A stretch of 20,415 nt of DNA from JACRDV01 sp024860865 [NCBI: Methanobacteriota archaeon] (GTDB lineage Archaea; JACRDV01): assembly GCA_024860865.1 (NCBI GenBank), contig JACRDV010000031.1:1-20415 (forward strand), given 5' to 3'. The notes under the pieces were generated by a model that did no database searches, was not told the DNA's origin, and worked only from the letters and a program-made list of their open reading frames with translations. Shown piece by piece: positions 1 through 18,390 of this stretch. The first letter of the stretch is position 1; each line of letters begins with the position of its first letter. The position numbers and the translations under genes are program-made.

Positions 1-814
1 CAAAAAATCCGCCTTCACTTGCATAAGTACTAGTTGTATAATCTAAACCAATCTGATGAAACATTTTGGCCCAGCCAATCATAGTGCCCCAGTGATATGG
101 GCTGAAGAACTCTGCAGAAGGCGTAACTAACATTACTTCAGCTCCTTTTTTGTTAAATGGAATCTTCGCATCTTCCTTTATCTCATCCCTCATTTCTTCC
201 TCAGCAAGCTCAATAGTTTTAGCAAATGCTTTTGGAGGGATCCCTAAATTATTTCCAATAGTATACACTTTTGCTATCACTTCAGTCACATACTTGGTTT
301 GGACGCCTACAGAAGTCAATAATTCCCTTGCAGCCCATGTTATCTCAGCAGTATCTATTCCATAGGGGCAGTAAAGCGCGCATCGCCTGCATTCGGCACA
401 TTGATAAAAATAAGGATATAATAAATCTTTTAGCACCTCTTCCGTTAACTCTTGAGCTCCTGCAAGCTTTCCAAAAAGTTTTCCACCAATTGTATAATAT
501 TTCCTATAAATAGACCGCAAAATTTCTGCTCTAGCTACTGGCATATTCCTTGGGTCTAAAGTGTCAATGAAAAAGTGACATTTATCTGCGCAAGCTCCAC
601 ATCTAACGCATATGTCTAAGTAAAGCTGAAAAGATCTATACTTCTTTCTTAATTCATCCATTTTTTTTATGAATATTTCCTTCCAATTTTGAGGGAGCTT
701 CCAGTCATCAAGCGTCCAATCTCTTGAATATGGTGTTCCCATTACGTCTGTATCTTTCTTTTTTGCTGCCCAACATTTGTATTTTTTAGCTGGAAAGCTT
801 AGATCAATCTTCAA
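1..814 (-). CDS. dsrK: DsrK-like iron-sulfur subunit of DsrMK(JOP) complex, C-terminus cut by window edge
   Basis: Cytoplasmic HdrD-like subunit expected to take electrons from DsrM and pass them to the sulfite-reduction machinery. My reading of the minus strand is open from 814 to the left edge, about 271 codons. I chose a TTG start at 814 because GGTGA (819-823) lies just upstream and no ATG or GTG is available there in frame; the reading frame overlaps the end of dsrM. Two 4Fe-4S motifs are visible: CVRCGACADKC (about residues 69-79) and CAECRRCALYC (139-149, followed by PYGID). A later stretch, YHWGTMIGWAKMFHQIG, resembles the DsrK/HdrD region before the CCG domains, which lie outside the window. 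HdrD is the alternative name, but the adjoining dsrM, dsrH and nearby dsrAB favour DsrK. The start is less certain than the identity. Confidence 0.88.
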   Translation of the reverse strand, partial: MKIDLSFPAKKYKCWAAKKKDTDVMGTPYSRDWTLDDWKLPQNWKEIFIKKMDELRKKYRSFQLYLDICVRCGACADKCHFFIDTLDPRNMPVARAEILRSIYRKYYTIGGKLFGKLAGAQELTEEVLKDLLYPYFYQCAECRRCALYCPYGIDTAEITWAARELLTSVGVQTKYVTEVIAKVYTIGNNLGIPPKAFAKTIELAEEEMRDEIKEDAKIPFNKKGAEVMLVTPSAEFFSPYHWGTMIGWAKMFHQIGLDYTTSTYASEGGFF

Positions 815-825: not shown

Positions 826-1695
826 CTACTTCTTTTTCTCTATAGCCTTTAGGTCAGCTTCAAATCTCTTTGCGTATTGTTCCCATGACTCTACCTTCAC
901 TGGATAATTCCACGGATTAACATATCTTCTAACTCTTGAATCATTCTTTTGGTTTCTTGTTGGACTAAAGAATATTCCAGGTGCATGCACTAGCTTACTG
1001 AATGGGAAGTAAGCAATAAGAACCCAAACAAAAAAGAGGTGCAAAAAGAAGAACCAATGTAGTTCTGGAACCACGGGTTTGAAAGCTAATAAGCTGAGCA
1101 TGTATGCTTTGACTTCTACTACGTTCACTCTGATGTAGTAAGCCAGTAAGTCTCCACTGATAACTATTGCTAATAACAGTAGCAGGGCGAAGTAGTCTGA
1201 GAATAATGAGATAAATCTTAGTTCTGGATAAACGAAGCGCCTAATCAGCAGGTAAAGAAGAGCCGCAATTATAAGAAGACCTGAATAATAAAGTCCTGGG
1301 ATGAAAGCTCCTATTTGGTCTATTGTTCGGAGAGATACTACCCACGAGAGAGATGGCTCAAAAAAATATCGTAACTGCCTTAGAATGATTATAAGTAACA
1401 TCCAGTGGAAAGCTAATGATCCGAGCCAGAGCCACTTGTTTCCCCTAGTCTCATCTTTTTCAAAGTCATAACTAGTATTCCTAAGTAGGCTTCTAAAGAC
1501 AAAAATTTCGCTAGCCATGCGAAGGATTACTCCAAGATATGTTTTTGGTTTTTCAAGATATCCACCAGTAACTACTATTTTGAGAGGTACTGGAATATTA
1601 GCCCATGAAATTATGCGCTGTACAAAACCTATGACAAAGATAACAAATGCAACATAGGGTACTACAACTCCAAAAAAGAAGTAAGTGAGACTCAC
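826..1695 (-). CDS. dsrM: DsrM-like membrane cytochrome b (NarI-type) subunit
   Basis: Integral membrane b-type haem subunit that in sulfur-metabolising prokaryotes links the quinone pool to DsrK. The 289-residue product has about five hydrophobic segments (near residues 3-25, 90-110, 128-150, 165-185 and 215-235). Histidines inside or beside them (FHWMLL and LHWFFFLHLFF) are candidate haem ligands. The C-terminal cytoplasmic piece SPTRNQKNDSRVRRYVNPW is characteristic of DsrM. The start is GTG at 1695, with GGAGGT (1702-1707) about six bases upstream. It lies between a tiny ORF and dsrK, and its stop overlaps the dsrK frame, so the genes are probably cotranscribed. A NarI-like gamma subunit in general is the fallback call. 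Confidence 0.9.
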   Translation of the reverse strand: MSLTYFFFGVVVPYVAFVIFVIGFVQRIISWANIPVPLKIVVTGGYLEKPKTYLGVILRMASEIFVFRSLLRNTSYDFEKDETRGNKWLWLGSLAFHWMLLIIILRQLRYFFEPSLSWVVSLRTIDQIGAFIPGLYYSGLLIIAALLYLLIRRFVYPELRFISLFSDYFALLLLLAIVISGDLLAYYIRVNVVEVKAYMLSLLAFKPVVPELHWFFFLHLFFVWVLIAYFPFSKLVHAPGIFFSPTRNQKNDSRVRRYVNPWNYPVKVESWEQYAKRFEADLKAIEKKK

Positions 1696-1725
1696 TAAAT
1701 TACCTCCATTTTAATTAAGTATCAT

Positions 1726-1806: not shown

Positions 1807-1817
1807 TTTATAATCTC

Positions 1818-2117
1818 CTACAACCATGCAAGCTTTTCATATTCATTCATTATCAAATCTACTAATCCGTTATACGTCACTATGTTCACTTTTTTATCTA
1901 CATCGTTGTCTGTAAATCCCCTTGTTTGTAGGTCTTCTGAAAGAACATAAAATTTTGCTCCTCCTTTCTCTAATAAAGGAGAAGTTTTTCCATTTTCTTT
2001 GATTACTGCATGCAAAATTCCATTGCTAACGAGAAAGATTCCAAGTTTTTCTGCATTCAGCCTATCTATTGTTCTTCCGGGAACCCTAAAATCACTTATA
2101 AATACACCAAGTTTCAT
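1818..2117 (-). CDS. dsrH: DsrH/TusB-family sulfur-relay protein
   Basis: A 99-residue protein of the DsrH/TusB family, which forms part of the DsrEFH/TusBCD complex that relays persulfide sulfur between carriers such as TusA. The diagnostic C-terminal half is present: KFYVLSEDLQTRGFT, then a VNIVTYNGLVDL stretch and a terminal LAWL that parallels TusB's final QMAW. The size matches the family (about 95-100). I chose ATG 2117 over an upstream TTG at 2156 because GGTGA lies four bases before the ATG and the family begins there. No DsrE or DsrF partner is visible in the window. It heads the minus-strand operon with dsrM and dsrK. No conserved family cysteine is visible: the product contains no Cys, so it would be a structural rather than a sulfur-carrying subunit. 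Confidence 0.8.
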   Translation of the reverse strand: MKLGVFISDFRVPGRTIDRLNAEKLGIFLVSNGILHAVIKENGKTSPLLEKGGAKFYVLSEDLQTRGFTDNDVDKKVNIVTYNGLVDLIMNEYEKLAWL

Positions 2118-2160
2118 CCCATCACCAAATAATAATTTCTGAATTTGTGATTGCAAGTTT

Positions 2161-2173
2161 TGCTATATAATTT
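2161..2173 (-). promoter_or_regulatory. Possible TATA box for dsrH-dsrM-dsrK operon
   Basis: On the minus strand AAAATTATATAGC lies about 50 bases before the dsrH ATG, with an A-rich BRE-like stretch before it. A start site about 25 bases downstream would leave a leader of roughly 20-25 bases containing GGTGA. The region is very AT-rich, so a chance match is possible. Confidence 0.4.
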
Positions 2174-2711
2174 TGATGGTCACTTAAATAAAAAACAAAT
2201 TATAATTATCTTTAGTTCACCATTACTCAATTTGAATAAAAAATTAAAAACCCAAACACAAATTATTTTTTTAGAAAAAAGAAACAAAAAATAAAAAAAC
2301 TCTAAGCATGAATTTTGAAGGGCATGCAGTTTCTACATAAACTTCATTATTTTTACGTTAGAATACAAGTTAAAATGGCTTAACTATCATTATCATTGCT
2401 TATTTAATAACCACTAAACTTTATAATTAGTAGTAAACAACATAAACAGTAAGAGTAAAAATATTTTTATATTTTAATAAAAAATAAAAATAAAAAAAAA
2501 ATTCGTAACTATTTAGCGATATGAAGTTGATTTTATTGCCTCTGCTAACCAATTTAAGGCACTTTATGGAGTAATATTTTTGCTACAAGTTAGCACATCG
2601 TCAATTTTGACGACCTGATGCACTTTAATGCAGAATTTACTTCAAATGGCTAAATAGATACAAAAATTCTTTAATAGCAATATAGTCGTCTATAGCAATC
2701 TAAGTGATTTT
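2174..2711. other. AT-rich divergent intergenic region between dsrH and tusA
   Basis: About 540 bases without a convincing gene. Positions 2200-2515 are extremely A/T-rich with long A runs. Positions 2520-2660 are less AT-rich and hold a perfect 14-base palindrome (2599-2612) and two copies of a GCACTTTA-A/-TG-like word (2559-2569 and 2620-2631). On the minus strand a frame across about 2517-2650 reads protein-like for short stretches but is interrupted by a TAA, so it is either a decayed gene or chance. The region must hold the promoters for both flanking transcripts. Confidence 0.5.
2599..2612. repeat. Perfect 14-base palindrome, possible operator
   Basis: CGTCAATTTTGACG is self-complementary, about 100 bases upstream of the tusA-like gene in a gene-free stretch. 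Short perfect palindromes like this are typical dimeric regulator sites, but no partner regulator is encoded in the window next to it. Confidence 0.35.
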
Positions 2712-2957
2712 ATGGCATTAAGGGATGAAAAACCAACAATAACAGTTGATGTGAAAGGAAAAGTATGCCCATATCCTCTCCTTGAGACAAAATTAACTTT
2801 GAAAAAAATGAAAAGTGGAGAAATTTTAGAGGTGATAGTAGACACAGAAGCGGCAGTAAAAACAAGCTTGCCTAACCTCTGCCAAAAAGAAAAACATGAA
2901 TTTGATTGTATAGAAAAAAGTCCGGGAGTTTGGAACATTTATATAAAGAAAGCCTAA
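2712..2957 (+). CDS. tusA: TusA-family sulfur carrier protein
   Basis: An 81-residue TusA/SirA-like protein. The family carries sulfur as a persulfide on a conserved cysteine and donates it to sulfur-relay or dissimilatory sulfur enzymes. The defining CPYP motif is at residues 19-22 (KGKVCPYPLLETK), followed by the usual helix and the SGEILEVIVDTEAA strand-loop region typical of the fold. Two further cysteines (LCQKEKHEFDC) are present. The ATG at 2712 has AAGTGAT upstream. It sits between dsrH (divergent) and dsrA (same strand, 250 bases away), which supports a role in sulfite/sulfide metabolism rather than tRNA thiolation. A T-rich run follows the stop. Confidence 0.9.
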   Translation: MALRDEKPTITVDVKGKVCPYPLLETKLTLKKMKSGEILEVIVDTEAAVKTSLPNLCQKEKHEFDCIEKSPGVWNIYIKKA

Positions 2958-2985
2958 AAAAATTCCTTTTTTCTTTTAATAAAAT
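2958..2985 (+). terminator. T-rich terminator after tusA
   Basis: The stop is followed at once by an A run and then CCTTTTTTCTTTT, matching the oligo-T signals that end archaeal transcripts. No strong hairpin. Confidence 0.4.
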
Positions 2986-3139
2986 TAATTAAATAAAATA
3001 TAAAATTATTTTTTAACTGGCTGACTTAAAATTTCAATCAATACTTTAAAAGCACATAATATAAGTTACACACTTAAAAATTTTTTAAATTTTTTGTTAG
3101 ATTCGCTGATTATTACCAGATATTCTTCTTCTCCAGCAC

Positions 3140-3155
3140 GAAATCTATTTATATG
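3140..3155 (+). promoter_or_regulatory. BRE/TATA box of dsrAB
   Basis: CGAAATCTATTTATATG lies about 55-65 bases before the dsrA ATG. With a start site about 25 bases downstream, this leaves a leader of about 30 bases containing the AGAGGTG ribosome site (3194-3200). Confidence 0.5.
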
Positions 3156-3207
3156 AACATTTTCCGATTATCAATCGCTATATGCTTATTTTTAGAGGTG
3201 TAAAATA

Positions 3208-4362: not shown

Positions 4363-4375
4363 AGAGGTGAAAAAA

Positions 4376-5449
4376 ATGTCCACTCAGCAGCCTATAAAAT
4401 TGGACTTTGGAGTTGTTCACTACGACCTAATGCTTCCTCCAATTATTAAGAGAAACTATGGAAAATGGAAGTATCATGAAATAATAAAGCCGGGTATTTT
4501 AAAACATGTTTCTGAAACTGGAGAAGAGTTTTATACTGTAAGGGCGGGGGCGCCAAAATTCGCAAGTGTAGATACAGTAAGAAAGCTTTGCGATTTGGCA
4601 GATAAATACTGCGATGGGTATCTAAGATTTACCAGCCGACATAACATAGAATTCCTTATTTCTAAGAAAGAAAACATTGATGGATTGATAGCAGATTTAA
4701 AGAAAATGGGACTCCCAGTTGGTGGGACTGGAAATTCTATGGCCAGCATAATACAATGTACTGCTTGGATGCATTGTCACACAGCAGCTACAGACGCAGC
4801 AGGGATAGGAAAGTCGGTATACGATGGATTATTCGAATACTTCCAAAGGATGGATTTGCCAGCAAAGCTAAAAATCGCGATCTCAGGTTGTTTAAACATG
4901 TGCGGCGCAGTTCACTGTTCAGATATAGCGATTTTGGGAGTCCACAGAGTTCCACCCAAAGTAATAGACGAAATAGTATCGAAGGCATGTGAGATTCCTA
5001 GCCTGATTGCAGTCTGCCCAACCTATGCAATTAAACCGAACCCGAAAGCTAAAAGCATAACAATAGATCCAGATAAATGCATGTACTGTGGCATTTGTTA
5101 TGGAATGTGCCCCGGAGTTCCACTAGCAGATCCGAAAAATGATGGTGTTTCAATTTGGGTAGGAGGAAAAGTCTCAAGCACTCGAAGCGGTCCAATGTTT
5201 TCTAGATTAGTTGTTCCGTATCTGCCAAATAATCCACCCCGATGGCCAGAAGTGGTCGATGTAGTGAAGAAAATAGTAAATGTATGGGTCGATGGTGCAA
5301 AGAAGGACGAAAGGATGGGAGAATGGATAGAAAGAATAGGTTGGGGTAGGTTCTTCAAAATAACAGGGATACCATTTACTGATAAACACATCGACGACTA
5401 TGTATTTGCAATTCCATCTATGAGTACTGGTGCTCAAGTTAGATTATAG
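4376..5449 (+). CDS. dsrB: Dissimilatory sulfite reductase beta subunit
   Basis: Beta subunit of DsrAB, 357 residues, expected to hold the catalytic siroheme. Family landmarks: FYTVRAGAPKFASVDTVRKLCDLADKY, FTSRHNIEF, HCHTAATDAAG, CLNMCGAVHCSDIAILG and a ferredoxin domain with CMYCGICYGMCP. The cofactor cysteines are Cys128-X5-Cys134 (CTAWMHC) and Cys172-X3-Cys176 (CLNMC). Canonical DsrB, as I recall it, has one cysteine in the first motif and CC at the start of the second; here the extra cysteine has moved to the first motif and Gly171 replaces the first of the CC pair, giving the CX5C/CX3C pattern of DsrA and assimilatory enzymes. I chose ATG 4376 over GTG 4367 because AGAGGTGA lies five bases before it. 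Confidence 0.95.
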   Translation: MSTQQPIKLDFGVVHYDLMLPPIIKRNYGKWKYHEIIKPGILKHVSETGEEFYTVRAGAPKFASVDTVRKLCDLADKYCDGYLRFTSRHNIEFLISKKENIDGLIADLKKMGLPVGGTGNSMASIIQCTAWMHCHTAATDAAGIGKSVYDGLFEYFQRMDLPAKLKIAISGCLNMCGAVHCSDIAILGVHRVPPKVIDEIVSKACEIPSLIAVCPTYAIKPNPKAKSITIDPDKCMYCGICYGMCPGVPLADPKNDGVSIWVGGKVSSTRSGPMFSRLVVPYLPNNPPRWPEVVDVVKKIVNVWVDGAKKDERMGEWIERIGWGRFFKITGIPFTDKHIDDYVFAIPSMSTGAQVRL

Positions 5450-5902: not shown

Positions 5903-7102
5903 ATGAATAAAAAACCCATATCAATTATGTGGGAATCTACTATTGCGTGCGGTCTCGCTTGCAAGCACTGCAAGGCTTCTGCTAAAAAAACTCCAGATCC
6001 TGATGAGCTTTCCACAGAAGAGGCAATGGATCTAGTTGACCAAATGGTTGAATTTGGCAAACCTTACCCAATTTTGCGCATAACAGGCGGAAATGCGCTG
6101 ATGAGGGACGATATATTTGAAATAATAAAGTGTGCAAAGGGTGAAGGGTTAAATGTTACAATAGCCCCTAGCACTACGCCTCTTTTGAATAGGGAGAATA
6201 TAACAAAGCTAAAAGAAGCAGGAACTGATGTAGTTGCGATAAGCATAGATGGAGCAGATGCTGAATCGCACGACAATTTCAGAGGAGTCAAAGGAACTTT
6301 TGATACAATGGTTAAGGCAACACAAATTATGAATGATGTGAAACTGCCATTCCGTCTTCTCACTACAGTAACAAAATTCAACGTCCGCAACTTACCCGAG
6401 ATATTTTTGCTCAGTAAAAGACTCGGTGCCATTGGATGGTATTTGTATATGCTTATCCCAACCGGAAGGGGTAAGATAGAACACGGAATAAGTCCAGCCG
6501 AATTTGAGGATGTTTTTAACTTCATTTATGATTTAATGAAATATCGTGTGATGACAATAAACGCAATAGCGGGAAGCGAACCATTCAGAAGAGTTGCCAT
6601 AATGAGAAGGCTTGTAGAAGAAGGCAAATTGAACGAAGAAGTGCTGAGATTGGGCGAGCTTTATCGCTTTTTGAAAAATAAGCTTGACAATTTGCTGAGC
6701 TCTGGATCGTTCGAGAAAATTGAAGTCTCAGCTAAAAAAAAGCATAACAACTTCGGTAAGGGCATATTCGTTTCAAGAAATGGTAGCGTATATCCAAGCA
6801 GTTTCATGCCGATAGAGATTGGAAATGTTCTAAATGATAGGTTAGCGCACATATATGCAAGCGCAGAAATTTTGAGAGATTTGAATAACACAAAAAAGCT
6901 TAAAGGGCGCTGTGGCATCTGCGAGTTCAATGACGTTTGTCGTGGTTCGAGGTCGCGTGCTTATGCTGTTACAGGCGACTATCTTGCTGAAGACCCTTAC
7001 TGCGCTTACCAACCAGGGACAGTAGGAAAGAGAGAAGGAAATGAAGCCATTCTTCAAGAATTACGTGTTACTAATTTTAGTCGTCAAGCACCTTCACTTT
7101 AG
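5903..7102 (+). CDS. Radical SAM/SPASM protein of the Ahb-like (TIGR04053-type) group
   Basis: A 399-residue radical SAM enzyme. The SAM-cluster motif is CGLACKHC (Cys16, 20, 23), followed by a partial TIM-barrel with RITGGNALMRDD, SISIDGADAESHDNFRG and LIPTGRGK. The C-terminus has a SPASM-type auxiliary cluster region with CGICEFNDVC and SRAYAVTGDYLAEDPYC. This arrangement and wording match the group annotated as TIGR04053, related to AhbC/AhbD, which convert siroheme derivatives to haem. Proximity to siroheme-dependent dsrAB and a GluTR-like gene fits tetrapyrrole work, but a peptide-modifying role cannot be excluded. No ribosome site is evident before the ATG, so the transcript may be leaderless. 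Confidence 0.8.
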   Translation: MNKKPISIMWESTIACGLACKHCKASAKKTPDPDELSTEEAMDLVDQMVEFGKPYPILRITGGNALMRDDIFEIIKCAKGEGLNVTIAPSTTPLLNRENITKLKEAGTDVVAISIDGADAESHDNFRGVKGTFDTMVKATQIMNDVKLPFRLLTTVTKFNVRNLPEIFLLSKRLGAIGWYLYMLIPTGRGKIEHGISPAEFEDVFNFIYDLMKYRVMTINAIAGSEPFRRVAIMRRLVEEGKLNEEVLRLGELYRFLKNKLDNLLSSGSFEKIEVSAKKKHNNFGKGIFVSRNGSVYPSSFMPIEIGNVLNDRLAHIYASAEILRDLNNTKKLKGRCGICEFNDVCRGSRSRAYAVTGDYLAEDPYCAYQPGTVGKREGNEAILQELRVTNFSRQAPSL

Positions 7103-8395: not shown

Positions 8396-9265
8396 CTATT
8401 TTAAAAATTCTAAGACAGAATCTGTTGGAACCGCATTCTGATCTAGACCGAGCTCAGCAGAATCAACTCCAAGACTCAAACCTAGCAACTGTGGATAAAG
8501 TAAGCTTGGGATATCATATGTTTCTCCATGGACTTCTTTAATTTTGAGCTGCTGAGAGTCGTACATAATATTACAAAAAGGGCAGATGGTAATGATGCAG
8601 TTTACACCAGCCTCTTTAAAGTTTGCCAATTTTTCTCGCGCTAATTTTGTAGCTAAGTCTTCATTTACAGAAAGCAATGGACCGCCACAACACCGAAGTC
8701 TATCTTTGTATTTAACACTCTTGGCGCCAGTTAATTCAATAAGCTCATCCAAATGCTTTGGCATTTCCGGGTCATCAAATCTGATATAATCTGACGGCTT
8801 TAAGAAGTGGCAGCCATCATGAGCTCCAACATTTAATCCATCAAATTGTTTTTTAATTTTATTCTTTATTTTATCAATGCCATAATCCTGAACCAGCATT
8901 GTAACGAAGTGTTTAATTTCAATTTTTCCTTTAAACTCGAGATCAACTGTTTTTAAAATTTCATTAATCTCATCACGAAGGTGTTTTTTATCTTTTAATG
9001 TTTTATTTGCTTTAATTAATGAAGTATGGCATCCGTTGCAAAGGACAACCATATCCAGACCCATCTCTTCTGCTTTGCAAATATTGTAAGCAGAGCTGGC
9101 CAACCAACCATTATATAACACAGATTCAATTTGCAGACCACAACAGCTAGCTCCAGGGATATCCACTAACTTAATTCCTAAAGCTTGAGCAACCTTTCTT
9201 GTTGAAAGGTCATAATGATTTAACCTAAATGGGATTGTGCAACCGAGAAAGTATGCATATTCCAT
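8396..9265 (-). CDS. hdrB: Heterodisulfide reductase subunit B-like protein
   Basis: A 289-residue HdrB homologue. Subunit B of HdrABC carries the active-site non-cubane iron-sulfur clusters that reduce disulfides such as CoM-S-S-CoB in methanogens. Both cysteine-rich CCG domains are complete: Cys9-X31-Cys41-Cys42-X33-Cys76-X2-Cys79 (CNGC), and a second with GCHFLKPSDY, CCGGPLLS and CPFC. This supports a real catalytic subunit. The substrate need not be CoM-S-S-CoB: no methanogenesis genes are in view, and sulfur-metabolising archaea use similar proteins for other disulfides or sulfur carriers. The start has GAGGAAT upstream and lies two bases after the hdrC stop, so translation is probably coupled. 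Confidence 0.92.
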   Translation of the reverse strand: MEYAYFLGCTIPFRLNHYDLSTRKVAQALGIKLVDIPGASCCGLQIESVLYNGWLASSAYNICKAEEMGLDMVVLCNGCHTSLIKANKTLKDKKHLRDEINEILKTVDLEFKGKIEIKHFVTMLVQDYGIDKIKNKIKKQFDGLNVGAHDGCHFLKPSDYIRFDDPEMPKHLDELIELTGAKSVKYKDRLRCCGGPLLSVNEDLATKLAREKLANFKEAGVNCIITICPFCNIMYDSQQLKIKEVHGETYDIPSLLYPQLLGLSLGVDSAELGLDQNAVPTDSVLEFLK

Positions 9266-9267
9266 TT

Positions 9268-9780
9268 CTATTCCTCTTTTGGCAATACTTTCTCAAGCCC
9301 AGCTTTCTTTAAGACTTTCTTCATTTTTTCAATGTCTACTGGCTCCACTGCAGGTAAACCCAAGTCTGCTCTTGCTTCGTTTTCAAAGTCAGTGATTTCT
9401 GTCACTCTTCCAATTTTATAAACACTTTCTGCAATCATTTTTATTCCATTTGGTACGTAACCCTGCCTAGCTGCAATGTTTCGAAGAGCTCTTATTACCA
9501 TAGCTGGTTTTACATCGCGCGGACATCTTTCATAACAATTATAGCAAAATGAACAAAGCCAAATAACATTACTAGAGAGCAACTCATCTTTAAACCCAAA
9601 AATAGACATACGGATAATCTCATGTGGTCGAAAAGTTGCCTCTAACTCTGCAACTGGACAACCACCACTGCAAGTACCACATGCATAACATCGAAGGAGA
9701 TGGTCTCCACCTTCTTCTTTTAAGACTAAGTTTTTGAAGGCGGGATCAATACGTTTTGGCGAAGGTTTTTCAGCCACCAT
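9268..9780 (-). CDS. hdrC: Heterodisulfide reductase subunit C-like protein
   Basis: A 170-residue HdrC homologue that wires HdrA to HdrB through two 4Fe-4S clusters. The motifs are CYACGTCSGGCP (near residues 31-42) and CSFCYNCYERCP (near 77-88), followed by the usual helical tail (AMVIRALRNIAARQG). The ATG lies at 9780 beside a shared divergent promoter region, and hdrB follows directly. The matching HdrA is encoded divergently from 10030, so the complex is encoded by two transcripts that start from one intergenic region. The last 25 residues are lysine- and glutamate-rich. Confidence 0.92.
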   Translation of the reverse strand: MVAEKPSPKRIDPAFKNLVLKEEGGDHLLRCYACGTCSGGCPVAELEATFRPHEIIRMSIFGFKDELLSSNVIWLCSFCYNCYERCPRDVKPAMVIRALRNIAARQGYVPNGIKMIAESVYKIGRVTEITDFENEARADLGLPAVEPVDIEKMKKVLKKAGLEKVLPKEE

Positions 9781-9976: not shown

Positions 9977-10029
9977 GACCGACCCTATGGGAAAACTGTT
10001 TATTTATGGAGCATTATCGAGATGAAAAA

Positions 10030-13000
10030 ATGACATTGAACCCAAAAACATCGGTGCTAGTAATTGGCGGTGGAGTTGCAGGCATTTATGCTTCCCTTGA
10101 GCTAGCCAAACAAGGCTATAGAGTCCACCTCGTTGAAAGAGAACCAACTATTGGAGGACGTTTGGCCCAAGTTTTTAAGGTATTTCCGACCGATGAGTGC
10201 GCTGCATGACCATTAACACCACTGATGGCAGAGGCAGCCAGCCACCCAAATGTAACATTGTATACCCTTTCTGAAGTCAAAGAAGTCAATGGCAGAGCTG
10301 GCGACTTTAAGGTTAAAATCTTAAAACATCCGAGATACGTTGACGAAACAAAGTGCACAGGTTGCGGGGCATGTTATGAGGTTTGCCCAGTTGAAGTTCC
10401 AAATGAATTTGATATGGGTTTGGGCGTACGGAAAGCAATATACGTTCCATTTCCACAAGCAGTTCCACTAACTCGAGCAATAGATAAAGAGCACTGTGTA
10501 AATTGCAGAATGTGCATTGGAAGGTGCAAACCTAAAGCAATTGATTACGATATGCAACCTCAATTAGTCGAAGTTAATGTCGGCTCAATAATCGTTACAA
10601 CTGGGTACGATGAGTTCAAGCCAGATATAAGGAAAGAACTTGGATATGGCATTTACCAAAATGTTATAACAACTCTTGAATTCGAGCGTTTGGCCCATGC
10701 AACTGGTCCAACTGAAGGACACATAGTCAGACCTTCTGATGGAAAAGCTCCTCAAAGAGTCATATTTGTGCAGTGCGTCGGAGCTAGAGATCTTAAGATT
10801 AACAAAGCGTTTTGCAATAAAGCTTGTTGCATGTATGGAATGAAAAATGCTGGCATTGTAAAGATGCACTATCCCGATGCAGAGGTTTATGTTTCTTACA
10901 TAGATATCAGAGCAGCAGGAAAACTTTTCGAAGAATTCTATCAAGCTAGAAAAGACCAATGGGGCATTAAGTTCGTAAAGGGTCGAGCTTCAAAAATCGT
11001 CGAGGACCCAAACACAAAGAACCTTATTGTGTCATTAGTTGATATGCAAACTGGCGATATAAGAAAACTCGAAGCGGATTTGGTCGTTCTAGTTGCTGCC
11101 TTTGAGCCGGCAAAAGGGACCGAAGAAATTGCAAAAATTCTTGGGCTTAAAATCGCAGAAGATGGATTTTTTGAGGAAAAACATGCTGTTGTAGCTCCGA
11201 ATGAAACAGCTATCTCCGGAATTTACCTCGGAGGCGTTAGTCAAGGTCCTAAAGATACTCCAGATTCAATTTGTCATGCAAGAGGTGCAGCCTCAGCATC
11301 AACGCTCAACCTAGGAATTCCACCTCAATTAAAAGAAGTTGAAGTAAAACCAGAATTTGAGTTGTCAGAAGAACCAAAAATAGGCGTTTTTGTCTGCCAC
11401 TGTGGTGGAAATATCTCAAACTATGCAAATGTTCAGGAACTCAGAGAATATGCAGAAAAATTGCCAAGCGTTGCAGTTGCTAAAGATTATGTGTTCATGT
11501 GCTCAGAGCCTGGCCAAAAATTGATCAAAGAAACAATTGCTGAGAAAAAGTTGAATAGAATAACGGTAGCCGCTTGCACACCAAGAGTTCATGAGCTTAC
11601 CTTCAGAAAGTGTTTAATAGGAGCTGGACTCGATCCCTACTACTTCGAGCTTGTCAATATTAGAGATCAAGATTCACTAGTCCATATGAATCAACCGAAA
11701 GAAGCCACTGAAAAAGCAAAAGACTTAATTCGCTCTGGAGTTGCAAGAGTTGTTAAACTTGAGTCAGTTCCATCAAGAGAAATCAAAGTTCAGCAAGTCG
11801 CTTTGATTATTGGCGCAGGCATAAGTGGAATACACTCAGCGCTAGACCTTGCAAATAGAGGCTTCAAAGTTTATTTAATTGAGCGCGAAGCTGAGATCGG
11901 CGGCCGAATGAAAAAGTTATACAAAACATTCCCAACAAACGATGAGACAGAAAGGCTATTAAAACCACTTATTGAAGAAGTCAAAAATCATTCCAATATC
12001 AAGTTGCTAACCTCTACAGAAGTAATAAGCTCAAGCGGAACCATCGGTGACTTTGCTGTGATAGTGAAACAGGGTTCTAAAGAAATAGAGCTTAAAGTTG
12101 GCGTAATAATTCTAGCTACTGGTACATCAGAATACGAACCAGCGCACGGTGAGTTTGGATACAAAATAAATCCAAATGTTATAACCCAGCTTGAACTTGA
12201 GCAGCAATTAAAAGAAGGGAAGTTCGAAAAACCAAACAATGTCATAATGATACAATGTGTTGGTTCAAGGCAAAAAGAGGGGAATAAATACTGCTCTAGA
12301 ATTTGCTGTAACGTAGCTCTGAAGAATGCAATGATTATCAGAGAGAAATATCCAGAAGCAAACGTGTATATTCTCTACAGAGACTTAAGGGCCTATGGCA
12401 GACGGATGGAAGAGTATTATCAGAAAGTACAAGAAATGGGCGTTATGTTCATTGAATATGATTCTGAAAAGCCGCCTGAAGTTACTGAAGATCCTTCCAC
12501 AAAAGAGCTAATTGTTAAAGTCGAAGATGCTGTTATCAGAAGAACAATTGAAATTCCTGCAGACAAAGTTGTTCTTTCCGTCGGCACCGTTCCACAGAAA
12601 GGAATTGAAAGAGCCTGTGAGCTGTTTGGAATTACAAGAACTGCAGATGGATTTCTTGAAGAAGTTCACTTAAAACTTGAGCCGAATGCCACAAGAGCTC
12701 CTGGAGTTTACATAGCCGGTTCTGCTGCTTTTCCAAAAGACATACCGGATTCAATATCAATGGGAAGAGCTGCCGCGTCTGTTGCATCAATTCCACTAGT
12801 AAACGGTTTGGTAAAACTTGAATTGGTAACAGCATTAGTTGATGAAAAAATTTGCGTGGGCTGTGGGATCTGTGAAACAATTTGTCCATTCGAGGCAATT
12901 AGAATCGAAGAAACCCCAAAGGGAAAAGTTGCCGTAGTAAACGAAGTTAAATGCAAAGGCTGTGGCCAATGTGTTGCTGCATGCCCGATTGGAGCTATGA

Positions 13001-13062
13001 GTTTACGTTACTGGAGAGATGAACAAATACTAGCATCGTTAGAGGCACTTTTAGCGGAGTAG
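10030..13062 (+). CDS. hdrA: Tandem HdrA-HdrA' flavoprotein with selenocysteine at an in-frame UGA
   Basis: Flavin-containing electron-bifurcating subunit of heterodisulfide reductase, about 1010 residues if UGA 10207-10209 is read as Sec60. The first unit has an FAD-binding GGGVAG, the motif DECAAUPLTP, an inserted ferredoxin part ([12 protein letters not shown] near 109 and [11 protein letters not shown] near 156) and the rest of the thioredoxin-reductase-like domain. A second HdrA unit follows: a cysteine domain (VFVCHCGG near 456, CTPRVHE), a second FAD site (GAGISG 595-600) without the CXXC or ferredoxin insertion, and a C-terminal two-cluster ferredoxin (CVGCGIC 942, CKGCGQC 975). The downstream paralogue has Cys where Sec stands. 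I chose ATG 10030 because GAGATGA precedes it by five bases; ATG 10006 is the alternative. It leads the operon. Confidence 0.92.
10207..10209 (+). other. UGA read as selenocysteine in HdrA
   Basis: TGA interrupts a frame that is conserved on both sides: FPTDECAA before it, [14 protein letters not shown] after it. In the downstream paralogue the aligned motif is FPTDDCIFC (Cys190, Cys193), so UGA takes the place of the second cysteine of a CXXC. HdrA is a known selenoprotein in Sec-decoding methanogens. Confidence 0.9.
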
Positions 13063-13073: not shown

Positions 13074-13478
13074 ATGGTCAATGAAAGAATTGTTATATTT
13101 GCTTGTATGAAATGAGGTTATGCAGCAGCGGATTTAGCCGGCACAATGAAACTTCAATATAATCCATCCGTTCGGATGTTAAGATTACCTTGCACTGGAC
13201 GAGTTGATGTTCTTCACGTCTTAAAGGCCTTTGAGTTAGGTGCAGATGGAGTTATGGTCGTTGCATGTAAAAAAGGAGAGTGCGCCTTCGAGACCGGAAA
13301 CTTAGCTGCAGAGAGAAGGATAATGTTTGTTAAAAAATTATTAAATCAACTTGGACTTGGGAGCGATCGAGTCAACATTTATTTTTTGTCTTCGGGAGAA
13401 GCGGATAAATTTGTAGCTGCAGTTAAAGATATGGTTGAAAAAGTTAAAAAACTTGGACCTAGCCCATTGAAGAAGTAA
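13074..13478 (+). CDS. mvhD: MvhD/VhuD-like 2Fe-2S electron-transfer subunit with selenocysteine
   Basis: A 134-residue MvhD-family protein, which passes electrons between a hydrogenase or formate dehydrogenase and HdrA. UGA 13113-13115 falls at residue 14 in FACMKUGYAAADLAG. The fused copy in the next gene reads FACDECGYAAIDVAG, so Sec replaces a ligand-type cysteine. Further family motifs follow: LPCTGRVD and VACKKGECAFETGN. Without reading UGA as Sec, only a 110-residue fragment from 13146 would remain, missing the N-terminal motif. The ATG at 13074 has GGAGTGA upstream and lies 11 bases after the hdrA stop. VhuD of methanococci is a known Sec protein. No hydrogenase or formate dehydrogenase gene is in the window, so its electron partner is unknown. 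Confidence 0.9.
13113..13115 (+). other. UGA read as selenocysteine in MvhD
   Basis: Codon 14 of the MvhD-like gene. It aligns with Cys675 of the HdrA-MvhD fusion encoded downstream, forming CXXU in place of CXXC. The fusion gene itself ends at a UGA (15854-15856), so UGA also serves as a normal stop here. Confidence 0.9.
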
Positions 13479-13489: not shown

Positions 13490-15856
13490 ATGACAAAGGT
13501 TGCAGCATTTGTATGTAGTTGCGGTGAAGAAATTTCAAAGAATGTTGATGTAGATGCTGTAGTTGAGCACATCAAAAAAATGCCATCTGTTATTGCGGTT
13601 AAACATGACTCTTTATGTTTACCTTCTGGAAAAGAAGTTATTCAAGAAACTCTTGCTAGAGAAGATGCAGAAAGGGTTGTTATTGCAGGATGTTCTCCGA
13701 AGTTAAATGAAATTTTGTTTAAAAGGGTGTTAAAAGACTCGAAGCTAAACCCATATTTATTAGAAATGGCAAATATTAGGGAGCAATGTGCATGGGTCCA
13801 TCCTGATAAGAAAAATGCTACTGACAAAGCTAAGGCTTTAGTTTCCGCTGCAATTGAAAAAGCTATGAAACTTGAACCTATCGAAAGCGCAAGCTTTACA
13901 GTGAATAATTCTGTTTTAATCATTGGAGCAGGAGTTGCTGGAATCCAGGCAGCAGTTGATTTAGCTGACCAAGGTTTTAAAGTTTATTTAGTTGATAGAA
14001 ACCCGACTATCGGTGGCAATACAAACCGACTCTATATGGCTTTCCCAACTGATGATTGTATATTTTGTGTTGCGTCTTCAAAAATTTTGCCGGGAATCAG
14101 AAAGTGCTTGTATAGGTCTAGTTTAACTTTACATCCGAATATTGAAGTGTTAACTTACTCTGAAATTAAAAAACTTGAAGGTTCGGTAGGAAATTTTAGA
14201 GCAACTATTGAGAAGAAACCTAAGTTTGTTGATGAAAGACTTTGTATTGCTTGTGGGCGATGCTCAGAGGTCTGTCCAATTGAAGTCCCTAATGAGTTTA
14301 ACTTTGGTATGAATAAAAGAAAAGCAATTTACATTCCTTTCTCAAACGCAATGCCTTTTACCTATATAATCGACGAAAAAAACTGCAAATTCGAGGCTTG
14401 TGGAAAATGCAGAAATATTTGTCCAACTAGGGCTATCAATTTCGATCAAACAACAACTGAATTAGAACTTAAAACAGGAGCAGTTATTGTGGCAATTGGC
14501 TTTGAAGAGTATGTGCCGGATAAAATAAGTGAATATGGGTTTGGAATTTACAAAAATGTTGTAACCCAGTCTTATCTTGCGCGAATGCTCGATCCAACTG
14601 GCCCTACTCACGGGAAAACAGTTAGGCTTTCTGATGGAGAGGAAGCTAAAAGAATTTTAATGATTCAATGTGTTGGATCGCGCGATAAAAAAACTAATTG
14701 GTATTGCTCCGGCATTTGTTGTATGTTTGCTCTAAAACACGCCATTTTGATGAAAGAAAAGAATCCTGATACCGATATAATAATCTCCTATATGGATATC
14801 CGTACTCCTGGTGATTATGAAAGCTACTACAATAAAGCTAGAGAATTGGGTGTAACTTTTCTTAGAGGAAGGCCTGCAGAAATAGCTGAAGATCCTCAAA
14901 CCAAGCAAGTAATTGCCAAGATTGAAGATACTGTATCGGGCGGAACGGCTGAGTATCCTGTAGATCTAGTTGTATTATCATCTGCTCTTGTCCCATCAAA
15001 AGGAACTGAAGACTTGGCTAAAATCCTGAAAATTGAAGTTAATGGAGAAACTGGTTTTGTTAAGCAACTCTATCCAAAGTTAAAGACGGTTGATACACGA
15101 ATAAAAGGTATTTATGTTTGCGGAGCAGCCACTGGACCAAAAGACATCCCCCAGTCAGTAACTGAAGGCAGTGCAGCCGCATCTAGAACTGCTTCGATCC
15201 TAACTCAAGGGACGTCAAGAGATTTAGCTATTGCAGTTGTTGATGAAAATGCATGCATTGGTTGTGAAATATGCGAGAAAGTTTGCCCACATCTTGCTAT
15301 TAGAATGATTGCAAAAGATGAAAAAAAGATTGCGCAAGTCAGCGCGCTAGAGTGCAATGGATGTGGGGTTTGTTCAGCTAATTGTTTGATTGGAGCTATT
15401 CAATTAAAGCATTCTGGGTTAGAACAACTTTTCTCTTATCTTAGCGGATTATTAACCGAAGTAAAAAAGAATGGGCTTAGGCCAATTATCATTTGTTTTG
15501 CATGCGATGAATGCGGATATGCTGCAATCGATGTTGCCGGCATAAATAAATTGCAATATCCAGCAAATGCCTTCGTAGTTAGAGTACCTTGTTTAGGCAG
15601 AATTTCAGCTCTGGAGATATTCAAAGCCCTGGAGGGAGGAGCTGATGGTGTTCTGTTAGTTGGGTGTATGCCGGATAGGTGCCACTATGTTAGAGGGAAT
15701 CAATGGTCTCAAGTTCATCTTGAAATAACTAAAGCTATACTTAGAGCAATCGGTCTAAACGAGAATAAAGTCAATATGTGTACCTTGCTTTCAGCTGAAC
15801 CTACCAAATTTGTGGATGCTATAAATGAGATGATCAAAAATTTAAGCAGTAGTTGA
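13490..15856 (+). CDS. HdrA-MvhD fusion flavoprotein, all-cysteine version
   Basis: A 788-residue single-chain fusion. Order: N-terminal cysteine domain (FVCSCGEEI, GCSPKLNE), FAD-binding GAGVAG (146-151), FPTDDCIFC (Cys190, Cys193), inserted ferredoxin (CIACGRCSEVCPIEV, then CKFEACGKCRNICP), remainder of the reductase domain, two C-terminal clusters (CIGCEICEKVCP and CNGCGVCSANC), and an MvhD domain from about residue 660 (CFACDECGYAAIDVAG, VPCLGRIS, GCMPDRCHYVRGN). Such HdrA-MvhD fusions are known and imply tight electron transfer from the 2Fe-2S site to the bifurcating flavin. It follows mvhD by 11 bases with GAGTGAG before its ATG. It is the Cys counterpart of the two preceding Sec genes and could be a partner subunit or a selenium-independent substitute. 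Confidence 0.93.
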   Translation: MTKVAAFVCSCGEEISKNVDVDAVVEHIKKMPSVIAVKHDSLCLPSGKEVIQETLAREDAERVVIAGCSPKLNEILFKRVLKDSKLNPYLLEMANIREQCAWVHPDKKNATDKAKALVSAAIEKAMKLEPIESASFTVNNSVLIIGAGVAGIQAAVDLADQGFKVYLVDRNPTIGGNTNRLYMAFPTDDCIFCVASSKILPGIRKCLYRSSLTLHPNIEVLTYSEIKKLEGSVGNFRATIEKKPKFVDERLCIACGRCSEVCPIEVPNEFNFGMNKRKAIYIPFSNAMPFTYIIDEKNCKFEACGKCRNICPTRAINFDQTTTELELKTGAVIVAIGFEEYVPDKISEYGFGIYKNVVTQSYLARMLDPTGPTHGKTVRLSDGEEAKRILMIQCVGSRDKKTNWYCSGICCMFALKHAILMKEKNPDTDIIISYMDIRTPGDYESYYNKARELGVTFLRGRPAEIAEDPQTKQVIAKIEDTVSGGTAEYPVDLVVLSSALVPSKGTEDLAKILKIEVNGETGFVKQLYPKLKTVDTRIKGIYVCGAATGPKDIPQSVTEGSAAASRTASILTQGTSRDLAIAVVDENACIGCEICEKVCPHLAIRMIAKDEKKIAQVSALECNGCGVCSANCLIGAIQLKHSGLEQLFSYLSGLLTEVKKNGLRPIIICFACDECGYAAIDVAGINKLQYPANAFVVRVPCLGRISALEIFKALEGGADGVLLVGCMPDRCHYVRGNQWSQVHLEITKAILRAIGLNENKVNMCTLLSAEPTKFVDAINEMIKNLSSS

Positions 15857-15861
15857 TATTC

Positions 15862-17298
15862 ATGGAAAAACGAGAAACAATCCTTGAGATAATAAAGAAC
15901 TTTGCAGGAATAGAAAGAGCTGTAAAGCCAATTATTGATGTTAAGAAAGAATTGATAACAACTCAAAACGAATTATCAAAACTAATATTGTCGCTTGAAT
16001 CCTTTAAGGCAGGATATGCCTCAGAATTTAACTCTTTATTAATTAAAGAATTAGTTAAAAAAATAAAGGCTCCTGAGATTTTAGATATTTTAAAAACTTT
16101 TGCAGAAAAAGAGAAACTCCAAGAATTAATCGATATTGTTGTTTCTATTAAACAAGAAAAAGAGCGCGAAAAAGAAAAAGCAATAGAAACAACAAAAAAA
16201 GTAAATGTTTTGGTTAAAAAATTTTCTGACTATATCTCCAGCGCATCATTTGATGAATTATCAAAAAAAATGAAAGAGATATACGATCTAATTAATTATC
16301 CTAGAGTGTTAACTGTTTCTGCAGTATTTCAAAAATTACATAGAGAGAAAAAAATCTCTGACCAAAAATTTCGAGAACTTTTTAAGGATGAAATCCTTTT
16401 GCAACTAGAAAGAGGCTCTATACTATTTGCTTTAGATAGAATAGGTCATATGACCTCGATTAAGGTATTTGAAACAACTGGAATTCTGCCGGACAAGGCT
16501 TATAAACACTTATGCGTTCTTAAGCGCGAAAATAAGATTCAGATTATTAGCGAAGAGAATGGCCATGAAGTGTTTGCAGCAGTTAAAGCACTTTCACCTG
16601 AAGAAGCTTCGTTAAAACAAATTTGTTTAAAAGCTATTGTTATTGGAGAAGAAATACTAAATTTAAAAACAAGGTCAGCTAATCTGAATGTTGAAGTTAT
16701 TGGTGAAGTCTTAAGGTCAATTGATAATATTCAAAGCCAACTAACTGAGCTGAGTCAAACGACAATCGCAGGTGTTATACTATCCAAAAACGCAATCGAA
16801 AAAACGCTCTTAGATGTTAAGCAGTTAAGAGCTCATTTAGGAGGATTTATAGAAAAAATTCCAACTAAACCGCGAGTTAGCATAGAAACACTAAAAGCAT
16901 TCGAAGTTCCGGAAGGCCTTGAAGGATATGGATTAGTTAAATGGGAATTTGAAAAATGTATTGGTTGTAGGATTTGCATCGATGTTTGCCCGCATAAAGC
17001 TCTTAACTTTAACACGCTACTTCCTTTATCTGAGGCAATTGCTGCGGTTGAAAAATTTCCGGAAGACAAAAAACTAAAAAAGAAAGCATTGTTTTTTGAT
17101 ATGATCAAAAAGCTTGCTGTAAAAATACCGACTGAACCAATCAAGTTTCCAGAAATAGCATTTGGCTATGGAAAAGTCGAATATGACCTTTTAAAATGCC
17201 TTGCTTGTAAGAATTGTGAGCAAAGCTGTCCATTGGATGCAATTAAAGTAATGCCTATTTTTGACCTCCCATCTCTAATGGTTCCTTCCAAAAAGTAG
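15862..17298 (+). CDS. Coiled-coil/winged-helix-like protein fused to a two-cluster ferredoxin
   Basis: A 478-residue protein I cannot place in a named family. Residues 1-150 are helical and highly charged with coiled-coil character (KEREKEKAIETTKKV). About 150-240 looks like a helical or winged-helix domain (FALDRIGHMTSIKVFETTG, then YKHLCVLKRENKIQII). More helices follow to about 350. The C-terminus has two 4Fe-4S motifs, CIGCRICIDVCP (from Cys366) and CLACKNCEQSCP (from Cys446), each preceded by a similar GYG-V-WE/Y phrase, suggesting an internal duplication. It starts five bases after the fusion gene's stop; I chose ATG 15862 over a TTG that overlaps the stop. As last gene of the hdr operon, it may be an electron-delivery or scaffold subunit, or a redox-sensing regulator. 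Function is inference. Confidence 0.8.
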   Translation: MEKRETILEIIKNFAGIERAVKPIIDVKKELITTQNELSKLILSLESFKAGYASEFNSLLIKELVKKIKAPEILDILKTFAEKEKLQELIDIVVSIKQEKEREKEKAIETTKKVNVLVKKFSDYISSASFDELSKKMKEIYDLINYPRVLTVSAVFQKLHREKKISDQKFRELFKDEILLQLERGSILFALDRIGHMTSIKVFETTGILPDKAYKHLCVLKRENKIQIISEENGHEVFAAVKALSPEEASLKQICLKAIVIGEEILNLKTRSANLNVEVIGEVLRSIDNIQSQLTELSQTTIAGVILSKNAIEKTLLDVKQLRAHLGGFIEKIPTKPRVSIETLKAFEVPEGLEGYGLVKWEFEKCIGCRICIDVCPHKALNFNTLLPLSEAIAAVEKFPEDKKLKKKALFFDMIKKLAVKIPTEPIKFPEIAFGYGKVEYDLLKCLACKNCEQSCPLDAIKVMPIFDLPSLMVPSKK

Positions 17299-17655: not shown

Positions 17656-18390
17656 TTACTTTTCCTCTTTTTCAAAAACATTTTTCGGCTCCTTTGGAGG
17701 ATACCCGAGATCCACTAAAAGCGGCACCTTCAGTCCCTTTGCATCCGTTGCTTTAAGTCCATTTAAAAACGTATCCGCGTCTCTAAATGGCATAAAAAAT
17801 GTTAGCTCATCAGTTTGGAATTTTCCGTATATTCTTGCTCCAGAACAAGGCAATACTAAATTTGGTTTGCCATTATTGTATACATACACTGGACCATAAG
17901 CACAAGGAGTTGCATTTGGCCCAATTACAAAATTTATATTTTCGCCAGTCTCATGGACATACGCATGTACGCAACGCATTGCTTGCCAAGCATTAACAAA
18001 AAGAGCAATAAGATCGGGTGTAAAGCGCACTTTACTTAGAGGCCCAACTATTATACCTTTACTTTTTAGTTTTGGTTTTAATTCAATCTCTTTTTTAGCT
18101 ATTTCTTCATTTTTTGCGTATCTCATTTGACTTATTATGTTTTTTTCTTCTATCTCAGCCATGCCAAAACTTATTTTTTCAAATATGCAAGCTAGTTCCT
18201 CTTCTGTTGCACCAACAACATAGCCACCTGTGCTTGCAATCTTCAGCATTTGACATGAGTATATCTTCTTCTTTACCAATGCCACCCCTTTTAATTCGTT
18301 CTCATCCTTTACAAATTTCCAAGCGACTGGATATTGCTCTAGTCTCAACAATTCAGTAATATTTTGTTCTAACTCTCTATAATTCGCCAT
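17656..18390 (-). CDS. DUF169-family protein
   Basis: A 244-residue protein matching the DUF169 group common in anaerobic archaea and bacteria. Recognisable parts: YPVAWKFVKDENELKG near the start, YSCQMLKIAS, IIVGPLSKVRFTPDLIALFVNAWQAMRC, GPNATPCAYG and the C-terminal VLPCSGARIYG. Conserved cysteines in these phrases (SCQM, MRCVHA, TPCAYG, LPCSGAR) could bind a cofactor or metal, but no function is established to my knowledge. The ATG at 18390 has AGGT six to seven bases upstream. It precedes the YkgJ-like gene on the same strand, 76 bases away, and is divergent from the CoA-binding gene. Confidence 0.82.
   Translation of the reverse strand: MANYRELEQNITELLRLEQYPVAWKFVKDENELKGVALVKKKIYSCQMLKIASTGGYVVGATEEELACIFEKISFGMAEIEEKNIISQMRYAKNEEIAKKEIELKPKLKSKGIIVGPLSKVRFTPDLIALFVNAWQAMRCVHAYVHETGENINFVIGPNATPCAYGPVYVYNNGKPNLVLPCSGARIYGKFQTDELTFFMPFRDADTFLNGLKATDAKGLKVPLLVDLGYPPKEPKNVFEKEEK

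What the first reader, a model, noticed from the sequence alone, without database searches (positions are those of the whole stretch)
10030..10359. HdrA is a selenoprotein: in-frame UGA replaces the second cysteine of a CXXC
The frame is conserved and HdrA-like on both sides of TGA 10207-10209. The paralogue 3.8 kb downstream has FPTDDCIFC where this gene has [11 protein letters not shown]. HdrA Sec is known in methanococci (family knowledge), but here it occurs beside dissimilatory sulfite reductase genes, a setting I do not know for Sec-HdrA. Standard gene callers would split the gene in two.
Basis: partly seen in the sequence, partly recalled or inferred. Interest (0 to 1): 0.85.

Follow-up and report, generated by a model that had tools for sequence, protein, structure and literature searches.

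The report
Selenocysteine HdrA in a sulfite-reducing archaeon
The gene is not broken: its internal stop codon very probably inserts the rare amino acid selenocysteine into a known electron-transfer protein, and the next gene does the same, in an uncultured archaeon that also carries sulfite-respiration genes.

Summary
Confirmed and extended. TGA 10207-10209 lies in frame in a 1018-codon hdrA (10006-13062), at the second Cys of CxxC, where a solved HdrA chain (9sfi) has a non-standard residue.

The same genome bin (92% complete, 160 contigs) has three more hdrA and two more mvhD genes with TGA at conserved Cys codons, and a selD with TGA at its own Sec site: 11 internal TGAs in 8 genes. It encodes SelB (cut at a contig end), SelD and a PSTK homologue. 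Two selenoprotein loci on other contigs are followed by archaeal SECIS hairpins. TGA is still used as a stop. Not found: tRNA-Sec, SepSecS, and a SECIS for the window's own operon.

The 'unknown setting' claim is wrong in general: Sec-HdrA was reported in a dsrABC-bearing sulfate reducer in 2009. I found no report of Sec-HdrA with dsrAB in an archaeon.

Verdict: real, a new member of a known kind. More novel side observations: HdrA with a second Sec in its N-terminal CxC, and possibly two SECIS types in one genome.

The parts
10006..13062 (+). hdrA, 1018 codons, FAD/4Fe-4S domain followed by a second HdrA-like half; Sec-type
   Evidence: NF040770 HdrA2 1127.5 bits over three stretches, cut-off 1100, when TGA is read through; alignment
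10207..10209 (+). in-frame TGA, predicted selenocysteine 68 (FPTDEC-A-A-U), second Cys of CxxC
13074..13478 (+). mvhD/vhuD (FlpD family), 134 codons, Sec-type; table 11 starts it only at 13146
   Evidence: PF02662 156.6 bits when read through
13113..13115 (+). in-frame TGA, predicted selenocysteine 14 of MvhD (FACMK-U-GYAAADLAG)
   Evidence: Cys or Sec in all 7 aligned rows (Sec written as Cys)
13490..15856 (+). second hdrA, all-Cys at the site (FPTDDCIFC), with a fused MvhD domain; TGA here is the true stop
15853..17298 (+). 481-aa protein with C-terminal 4Fe-4S ferredoxin domains, last gene of the row
9268..9780 (-). hdrC-like, divergent from hdrA
   Evidence: TIGR03290 128 bits (cut-off 160)
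8396..9265 (-). hdrB-like (two CCG domain stretches)
   Evidence: TIGR03288 313.5 bits (cut-off 345.15), PF02754
3208..4362 (+). dsrA
   Evidence: TIGR02064 493.6 bits, over cut-off; nearest solved chain 3mm5 by phmmer
4367..5449 (+). dsrB
   Evidence: TIGR02066 500.3 bits, over cut-off
826..1695 (-). dsrM
   Evidence: NF038037 305.2 bits, over cut-off 300
2..814 (-). dsrK, cut by the contig end
   Evidence: NF045796 322.1 bits, under cut-off 400, partial gene
1818..2156 (-). tusB/dsrH-like
   Evidence: TIGR03011 47.1 bits, just under 49.2
2712..2957 (+). tusA-like sulfurtransferase
   Evidence: matches to TusA-like families, all under cut-off

Best explanation
UGA 10207-10209 is decoded as selenocysteine, giving a full-length Sec-HdrA; UGA 13113-13115 does the same in the adjacent MvhD. 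The route is the archaeal one: Ser-tRNA-Sec, PSTK, SepSecS with SelD-made selenophosphate, then SelB delivers Sec-tRNA when a SECIS hairpin on the mRNA calls for it. In HdrA the Sec lies in a CxxU of the flavin domain; in MvhD it lies among the conserved Cys of the [2Fe-2S] subunit. With the divergent hdrB-hdrC it would form an HdrABC-MvhD electron-bifurcating complex that feeds or draws electrons beside DsrAB/DsrMK. Shown by sequence: the frames, the Cys alignment, SelB, SelD, the PSTK homologue, SECIS hairpins at two other loci of the genome. Inferred: actual Sec insertion, SepSecS and tRNA-Sec (not found), the SECIS of this operon (not found), the complex and its coupling to sulfite reduction.
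For: Frame and position. Genome: TGA also in hdrA of C68, C55 and C147 (two in C147), in mvhD of C68 (two) and C147 (two), and in selD at HG-U-ACK. SelB 297.9 bits, cut-off 242.25; SelD 369.3 bits, PRK14105 cut-off 291; PSTK 195.6 bits (cut-off 290.5), only PSTK models matching at E<=1e-8. SECIS: C68, 3' of Sec-mvhD, 9-bp stem, GAA/A bulge, CC/GG, 4-nt loop, z -3.97, 0 of 100 dinucleotide shuffles reach it; C124, 3' of selD, same shape with AAA/A, 0 of 100. The same scan finds such hairpins just after Sec-hdrA in three other genomes, G022, G009 and G031, which also have tRNA-Sec. HdrA tree with the Sec letter masked: window row with C68, C147, a Helarchaeota row and rows of G022 and G009, apart from the bacterial Sec-HdrA. 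TGA still ends 2 of 18 window genes whose stop is seen.
Against: tRNA-Sec: none in the assembly. SepSecS: TIGR03531 none; the one PF05889 hit is SepCysS. SelA: none. PSTK is under its curated cut-off. No SECIS of either known archaeal shape was found for the window's own hdrA-mvhD; the next gene starts 12 nt after mvhD. In an earlier, looser scan 1 of 30 mononucleotide shuffles of an 11-kb stretch scored 28, above the 27.5 of the C68 hairpin. The link of the other contigs to the window rests on the binning; composition supports it for the larger contigs only. The assembly is 92% complete in 160 contigs and selB is cut at a contig end, so the gaps are not decisive; three Asgard genomes, one Lokiarchaeota (best 44.2 bits, cut-off 47) and two Sifarchaeum, whose clades are reported as Sec users, also lack an over-cut-off tRNA-Sec. 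No protein or selenium data.
Confidence: 0.93

Rival explanations
1. The TGA is a sequencing or assembly error, or the gene is a pseudogene.
For: Metagenome assembly, 160 contigs; no reads available.
Against: Eleven internal TGAs in eight genes, all at Cys/Sec codons, and no TAA or TAG inside those matches. Both sides of the window's TGA keep the HdrA sequence.
Confidence: 0.02
2. UGA is a true stop and HdrA is made as two polypeptides (split gene).
For: Gene callers would annotate it so; an ATG lies 15 bases after the TGA. No SECIS found for this operon.
Against: The 67-aa piece would end inside the FAD domain; the Sec position is the known one; mvhD would lose its first CxxC.
Confidence: 0.03
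3. UGA is reassigned genome-wide to Cys or Trp.
For: Cys is the residue in the homologues.
Against: TGA ends 2 of 18 window genes whose stop is seen; the internal UGAs found lie in families known to hold Sec; SelB and SelD are present.
Confidence: 0.01
4. UGA is decoded through tRNA-Sec but loaded with Cys, because SepSecS is absent while SepCysS is present.
For: SepSecS not found; SepCysS found on C74.
Against: SelD, which makes selenophosphate, is present and has its own UGA; the assembly is incomplete. No precedent known to me.
Confidence: 0.01

Closest known systems
Sec-HdrA (NF040770, CxxU) of Methanococcales, Methanopyrus and Asgard archaea
   Same: Same family, same Sec position, hdrA followed at once by Sec-mvhD; grouped in the tree with a Helarchaeota row and two unnamed tRNA-Sec-bearing archaea.
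   Different: Double-length HdrA; beside dsrAB/dsrMK; none of the 40 genomes offered as relatives is closer than the same domain.
Sec-HdrA of sulfate-reducing Desulfobacterota (e.g. Desulfobacterium autotrophicum HdrA1/HdrA2)
   Same: Sec-HdrA with MvhD in a dsr-bearing organism (PMC2702500, passages).
   Different: Separate branches of the HdrA tree; bacterial route with SECIS inside the coding region (PMC13188914, passages).
Sec system of the AK8/W8A-19 archaea (PMC5424206, passages)
   Same: Archaea outside methanogens and Asgard with Sec-HdrA, VhuD and SPS, plus SepCysS.
   Different: Their SPS is described as split in two fragments; here selD is one gene. Whether this genome belongs to that group could not be tested.
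Euryarchaeal SECIS (GAA/A)
   Same: C68 hairpin matches the published shape: basal helix about 10 bp, GAA/A, two or three G-C pairs, loop of 4-8 (PMC9622424, passages).
   Different: C124 has AAA instead of GAA and a 3-nt loop; C147 has a hairpin nearer to the Asgard eSECIS-like type II.

Membership tests
Selenoprotein HdrA | HdrA family protein across the UGA | tested here: met
   NF040770 1127.5 bits, cut-off 1100; 5odc/9sfi matches on both sides
Selenoprotein HdrA | UGA at the second Cys of FPTxDCxxC | tested here: met
Selenoprotein MvhD/VhuD | UGA at CxxU near the N-terminus | tested here: met
Archaeal Sec-decoding trait | SelB (EFSec) | tested here: met
   TIGR00475 297.9 bits over 242.25, first half only, cut by the contig end
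Archaeal Sec-decoding trait | SelD | tested here: met
   TIGR00476 and PRK14105 over cut-off, with its own UGA
Archaeal Sec-decoding trait | PSTK | tested here: inconclusive
   TIGR03574 195.6 bits, under the cut-off 290.5, but only PSTK models match at E<=1e-8
Archaeal Sec-decoding trait | SepSecS | tested here: inconclusive
   not found in a 92% complete assembly
Archaeal Sec-decoding trait | tRNA-Sec | tested here: inconclusive
   not found; the same search passes its cut-off in 4 of 8 genomes
Archaeal Sec-decoding trait | SECIS element on the mRNA of this operon | tested here: inconclusive
   neither of the two known archaeal shapes found; present at C68 and C124 of the same genome
Selenoprotein HdrA | selenium in the protein | not testable with these tools
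   needs mass spectrometry or 75Se labelling

The most novel reading that the evidence does not exclude
A deep archaeal lineage outside Methanococcales, Methanopyrales and Asgard, bearing dsrAB, that decodes UGA with two SECIS types in one genome (euryarchaeal GAA/A-like at C68 and C124, Asgard eSECIS-like at C147) and makes HdrA with two selenocysteines (the known CxxU plus a CxU in the N-terminal domain, shared with a Helarchaeota locus), so that one SelB would read both hairpin types.
Probability: 0.3. Interest if true: 0.72.

Novelty: new member of a known kind. Interest (0 to 1): 0.5.

Why it matters
It adds a dsr-bearing archaeon to the few archaea known to use selenocysteine and ties Sec-HdrA/MvhD to a sulfur-respiring gene setting in archaea. 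Automatic annotation would split hdrA and shorten mvhD. If the two SECIS types in one genome hold, the lineage would be a natural test bed for how the euryarchaeal and Asgard/eukaryote-like SECIS are related.

Tried and rejected
SECIS for the window operon: scans for GAA/A and RAA/A hairpins, for [AG]UGA..[GA]A hairpins, general folding and Rfam gave nothing convincing at or near hdrA/mvhD; the best window hit lies inside dsrA and 2 of 100 shuffles reach it. A bacterial-type hairpin after the UGA: z +0.31, rejected. A fold 3' of mvhD, inside the next gene: z -0.83, not counted. My eSECIS-like scan also found nothing in the Helarchaeota locus L118, so its negatives mean little. Rfam does not recognise the C68, C124 and C147 hairpins as SECIS; in a control it matched one of two such hairpins in G022, as flpD RNA, 35.8 bits, under its cut-off of 40.

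tRNA-Sec candidates: C134 and C152 are tRNA-Ser, C29 is tRNA-Thr, C42 is an ordinary tRNA with an insert, probably an intron. A [NiFe] hydrogenase large subunit on C50 shows no TGA inside its match, so VhuU/FrhA-type Sec was not found.

Naming the organism: the EF-2 tree puts it on a long branch near the base of the euryarchaeal rows, not trusted. A first alignment of SECIS hairpins for a covariance model was misaligned and not used; no model was built.

Papers: Mariotti 2016 is not held. That Sec-HdrA with dsrAB in an archaeon is unreported rests on searches and the passages seen; supplements could not be read. For the dsr-bearing Hydrothermarchaeota (PMC6775978, PMC6946796; passages) the passages say nothing of Sec.

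Full report
What is there. Contig G000:C132 (the window) holds, on the plus strand, hdrA 10006-13062, mvhD 13074-13478, a second hdrA with fused MvhD domain 13490-15856 and a ferredoxin-domain gene to 17298. hdrB and hdrC run the other way at 8396-9780. dsrA, dsrB, dsrM, a cut dsrK, a tusB/dsrH-like and a tusA-like gene lie in 2-5449.

The observation. Read through TGA 10207-10209, hdrA is one open frame of 1018 codons that reaches the curated cut-off for HdrA2 (1127.5 bits over three stretches, against 1100). In 12 aligned HdrA the codon is the invariant second Cys of CxxC; six of the 12 have TGA there and six have Cys. In the solved chain 9sfi_A the aligned residue is X, a non-standard residue; that X is selenocysteine is my inference.

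More than chance. The same genome (1.54 Mb, 160 contigs, 92.45% complete, 0.73% contamination) has TGA at the HdrA site on C68, C55 and C147, a further TGA in the C147 hdrA, two internal TGAs each in mvhD of C68 and C147, and one in selD at HG-U-ACK. With the window that makes 11 internal TGAs in 8 genes, all at Cys/Sec codons; no TAA or TAG lies in those matches. Some ORFs have further TGAs upstream of the probable start or at the end, which I did not count (C147 mvhD, C68 mvhD, selD). Other copies have no TGA: C147:5193, C67 and 13490 for hdrA; of the 8 FlpD matches, 3 have TGA and 5 do not. TGA is the true stop of 2 of 18 window genes whose stop is seen, so it is not reassigned throughout.

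Machinery. SelB is present but cut by the end of contig C153 (297.9 bits, over its cut-off), SelD is over two cut-offs, and a PSTK homologue on C153 matches only PSTK models at E<=1e-8 but stays under the curated score (195.6 against 290.5). SepSecS was not found by TIGR03531; the single PF05889 hit is SepCysS. SelA was not found. tRNA-Sec was not found, although the same search passes its cut-off in G009, G031, G022 and the Helarchaeota genome, 4 of 8 genomes. The four misses are G000, one Lokiarchaeota (best 44.2 bits, cut-off 47) and two Sifarchaeum genomes. I read these gaps as gaps of the assembly; that is inference.

SECIS. On C68, 1 nt after the apparent TGA stop of Sec-mvhD, begins a 9-bp stem with GAA/A bulge, CC/GG and a 4-nt loop (z -3.97; 0 of 100 dinucleotide shuffles of the 6-kb stretch as good). 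In an earlier, looser scan 1 of 30 mononucleotide shuffles of another, 11-kb stretch scored 28 against its 27.5, so the place beside the Sec gene is part of the evidence. On C124, 10 nt after selD, lies the same shape with AAA/A (z -3.10 for the 91-nt stretch; 0 of 100). This is the published archaeal form, apart from the AAA and the 3-nt loop (PMC9622424, passages). Controls: the scan finds the like just after Sec-hdrA in G022 (with a second one 0.6 kb on), G009 and G031, and Rfam reads one of the two in G022 as flpD RNA, under its cut-off. On C147, at the 3' end of Sec-mvhD, a hairpin has a GUGA/GA core, unpaired GAAA and a small top stem, which I read as like the Asgard eSECIS-like type II (z -3.06 for 53 nt, -2.30 for 71 nt; PMC11227280, section 14). 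The predicted minimum-energy fold differs in part from that reading. My scan found no such hairpin in 20 shuffles of 8 kb, but it also missed the Helarchaeota control, so this one is tentative. On C55 a GAA/A hairpin lies before, not after, hdrA, with UC/GA in place of two G-C pairs (z -3.52). For the window's own operon nothing was found. Another gene begins 12 nt after mvhD, so a SECIS there would have to sit inside coding sequence, in the 5' leader or at the far end of the transcript. This is the main hole in the case.

Relatives. In a tree of 116 HdrA domains with the Sec letter masked, 33 rows are Sec-type and 83 Cys-type. The window row joins C68 (support 89) and, in an unstarred set of six (89), C147 with a Helarchaeota row (99) and rows of G022 and G009 (98), two genomes with tRNA-Sec. 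The Cys-type copies 13490 and C67 stand next to this set; the Sec-type C55 copy stands elsewhere, and so do the Sec-HdrA of Desulfobacterota-type bacteria. The label needs at least 11 changes on the tree. From recall, not from a call, I take G009/G031 for Methanopyrus and G022 for a Methanococcales.

Setting. It is known in bacteria: Desulfobacterium autotrophicum has Sec-HdrA1 and HdrA2 with MvhD and dsrABC (PMC2702500, passages), Desulfotalea and Desulfotomaculum are listed with Sec-HdrA (PMC1794560, passages and table rows), and 26 of 79 named loci with an HdrA row carry UGA, 21 of them Desulfobacterota-type by title, their dsr genes unchecked. For archaea, the review of 2026 names Methanococcales, Methanopyrales and Asgard as Sec users; a 2017 paper adds the AK8/W8A-19 group with SPS, HdrA, VhuD and VhuU (PMC5424206, passages), and a 2024 paper Atabeyarchaeia and Freyarchaeia, also Asgard (PMC11291895, passages). 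I found no report of Sec-HdrA together with dsrAB in an archaeon in searches; supplements could not be read.

Which organism. None of 40 genomes offered as relatives is closer than the same domain. The EF-2 tree leaves it on a long branch. DsrA is nearest, among solved chains, to 3mm5, which from recall is Archaeoglobus. Contig composition agrees with one genome for the four larger contigs (r 0.43-0.54 to the window); the five smaller stretches (0.24-0.38) do not stand out from ten loci of other genomes (-0.02 to 0.45). Their membership rests on the binning.

How it most likely works. Sec replaces one thiol of a CxxC in the flavin domain of HdrA and one of the conserved Cys of MvhD, whose homologues carry a [2Fe-2S] cluster near the HdrA flavin (PMC12350162, passages). 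Together with hdrB/hdrC this is the gene set of an HdrABC-MvhD electron-bifurcating complex. Its place beside dsrAB and dsrMK suggests a link to sulfite reduction. The partners, the direction and any role of a DsrC-type disulfide are inference; nothing here tests them.

A new point. The C147 HdrA has UGA not only at CxxU but also in the N-terminal CxC motif (ICK-U-GVN). The same N-terminal UGA occurs in a Helarchaeota HdrA that also has the CxxU (L118) and in a Freyarchaeota locus next to a two-UGA mvhD (L058): three distinct places, against 127 motif sites seen in 100 loci, overlapping loci counted more than once. The 2026 review lists one Sec for HdrA and two for FrhD; I did not find the N-terminal site described in the passages seen, but made no search for it alone.

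Noticed in passing
L052:6412-8334 (G000:C147), L118:11483-13501, L058:11898: Second UGA in HdrA, in the N-terminal CxC motif (ICK-U-GVN, VCN-U-GKN, VCE-U-GVN), in three archaeal genomes; not the Sec site listed for HdrA in the 2026 review.
   Followed up: partly
L139/L050 (G000:C68), L142 (G000:C147), L058:13913-14347: MvhD with two UGAs: CxKU near the N-terminus and GU..GEC or GU..GDC further on; the review says multiple Sec in FrhD/VhuD is known in archaea.
   Followed up: partly
L052 about 5960-6012, minus (G000:C147): Hairpin at the 3' end of Sec-mvhD, more like the Asgard eSECIS-like type II than the GAA/A form seen on C68 and C124; possible mix of SECIS types in one genome.
   Followed up: partly
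L051:2429-2459, minus (G000:C55): GAA/A hairpin upstream of, not after, the Sec-hdrA (z -3.52); could be a 5' SECIS or chance.
   Followed up: no
L050 about 254-256, minus (G000:C68): The apparent TGA stop of the C68 mvhD is followed by Cys-Ser-TAG; if read as Sec the protein would end G-U-C-S. Probably just a stop.
   Followed up: no
L176 (G000:C74): SepCysS present (337.7 bits, PRK09331), fitting the 2017 report that some Sec-using archaea also make Cys on tRNA.
   Followed up: partly
L168 (G000:C134): EF-2 is very divergent (branch 1.21 changes per column), as in two Asgard rows of the same tree.
   Followed up: no
L189:617-706, minus (G000:C42): tRNA gene with an insert in the anticodon arm (probably an intron) that ARAGORN cannot name.
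   Followed up: partly
window 5903-7102 and 17656-18390: Radical SAM/SPASM protein of TIGR04053 next to dsrAB (second-best model: heme b synthase AhbD), and a DUF169 protein downstream of the hdr genes.
   Followed up: no
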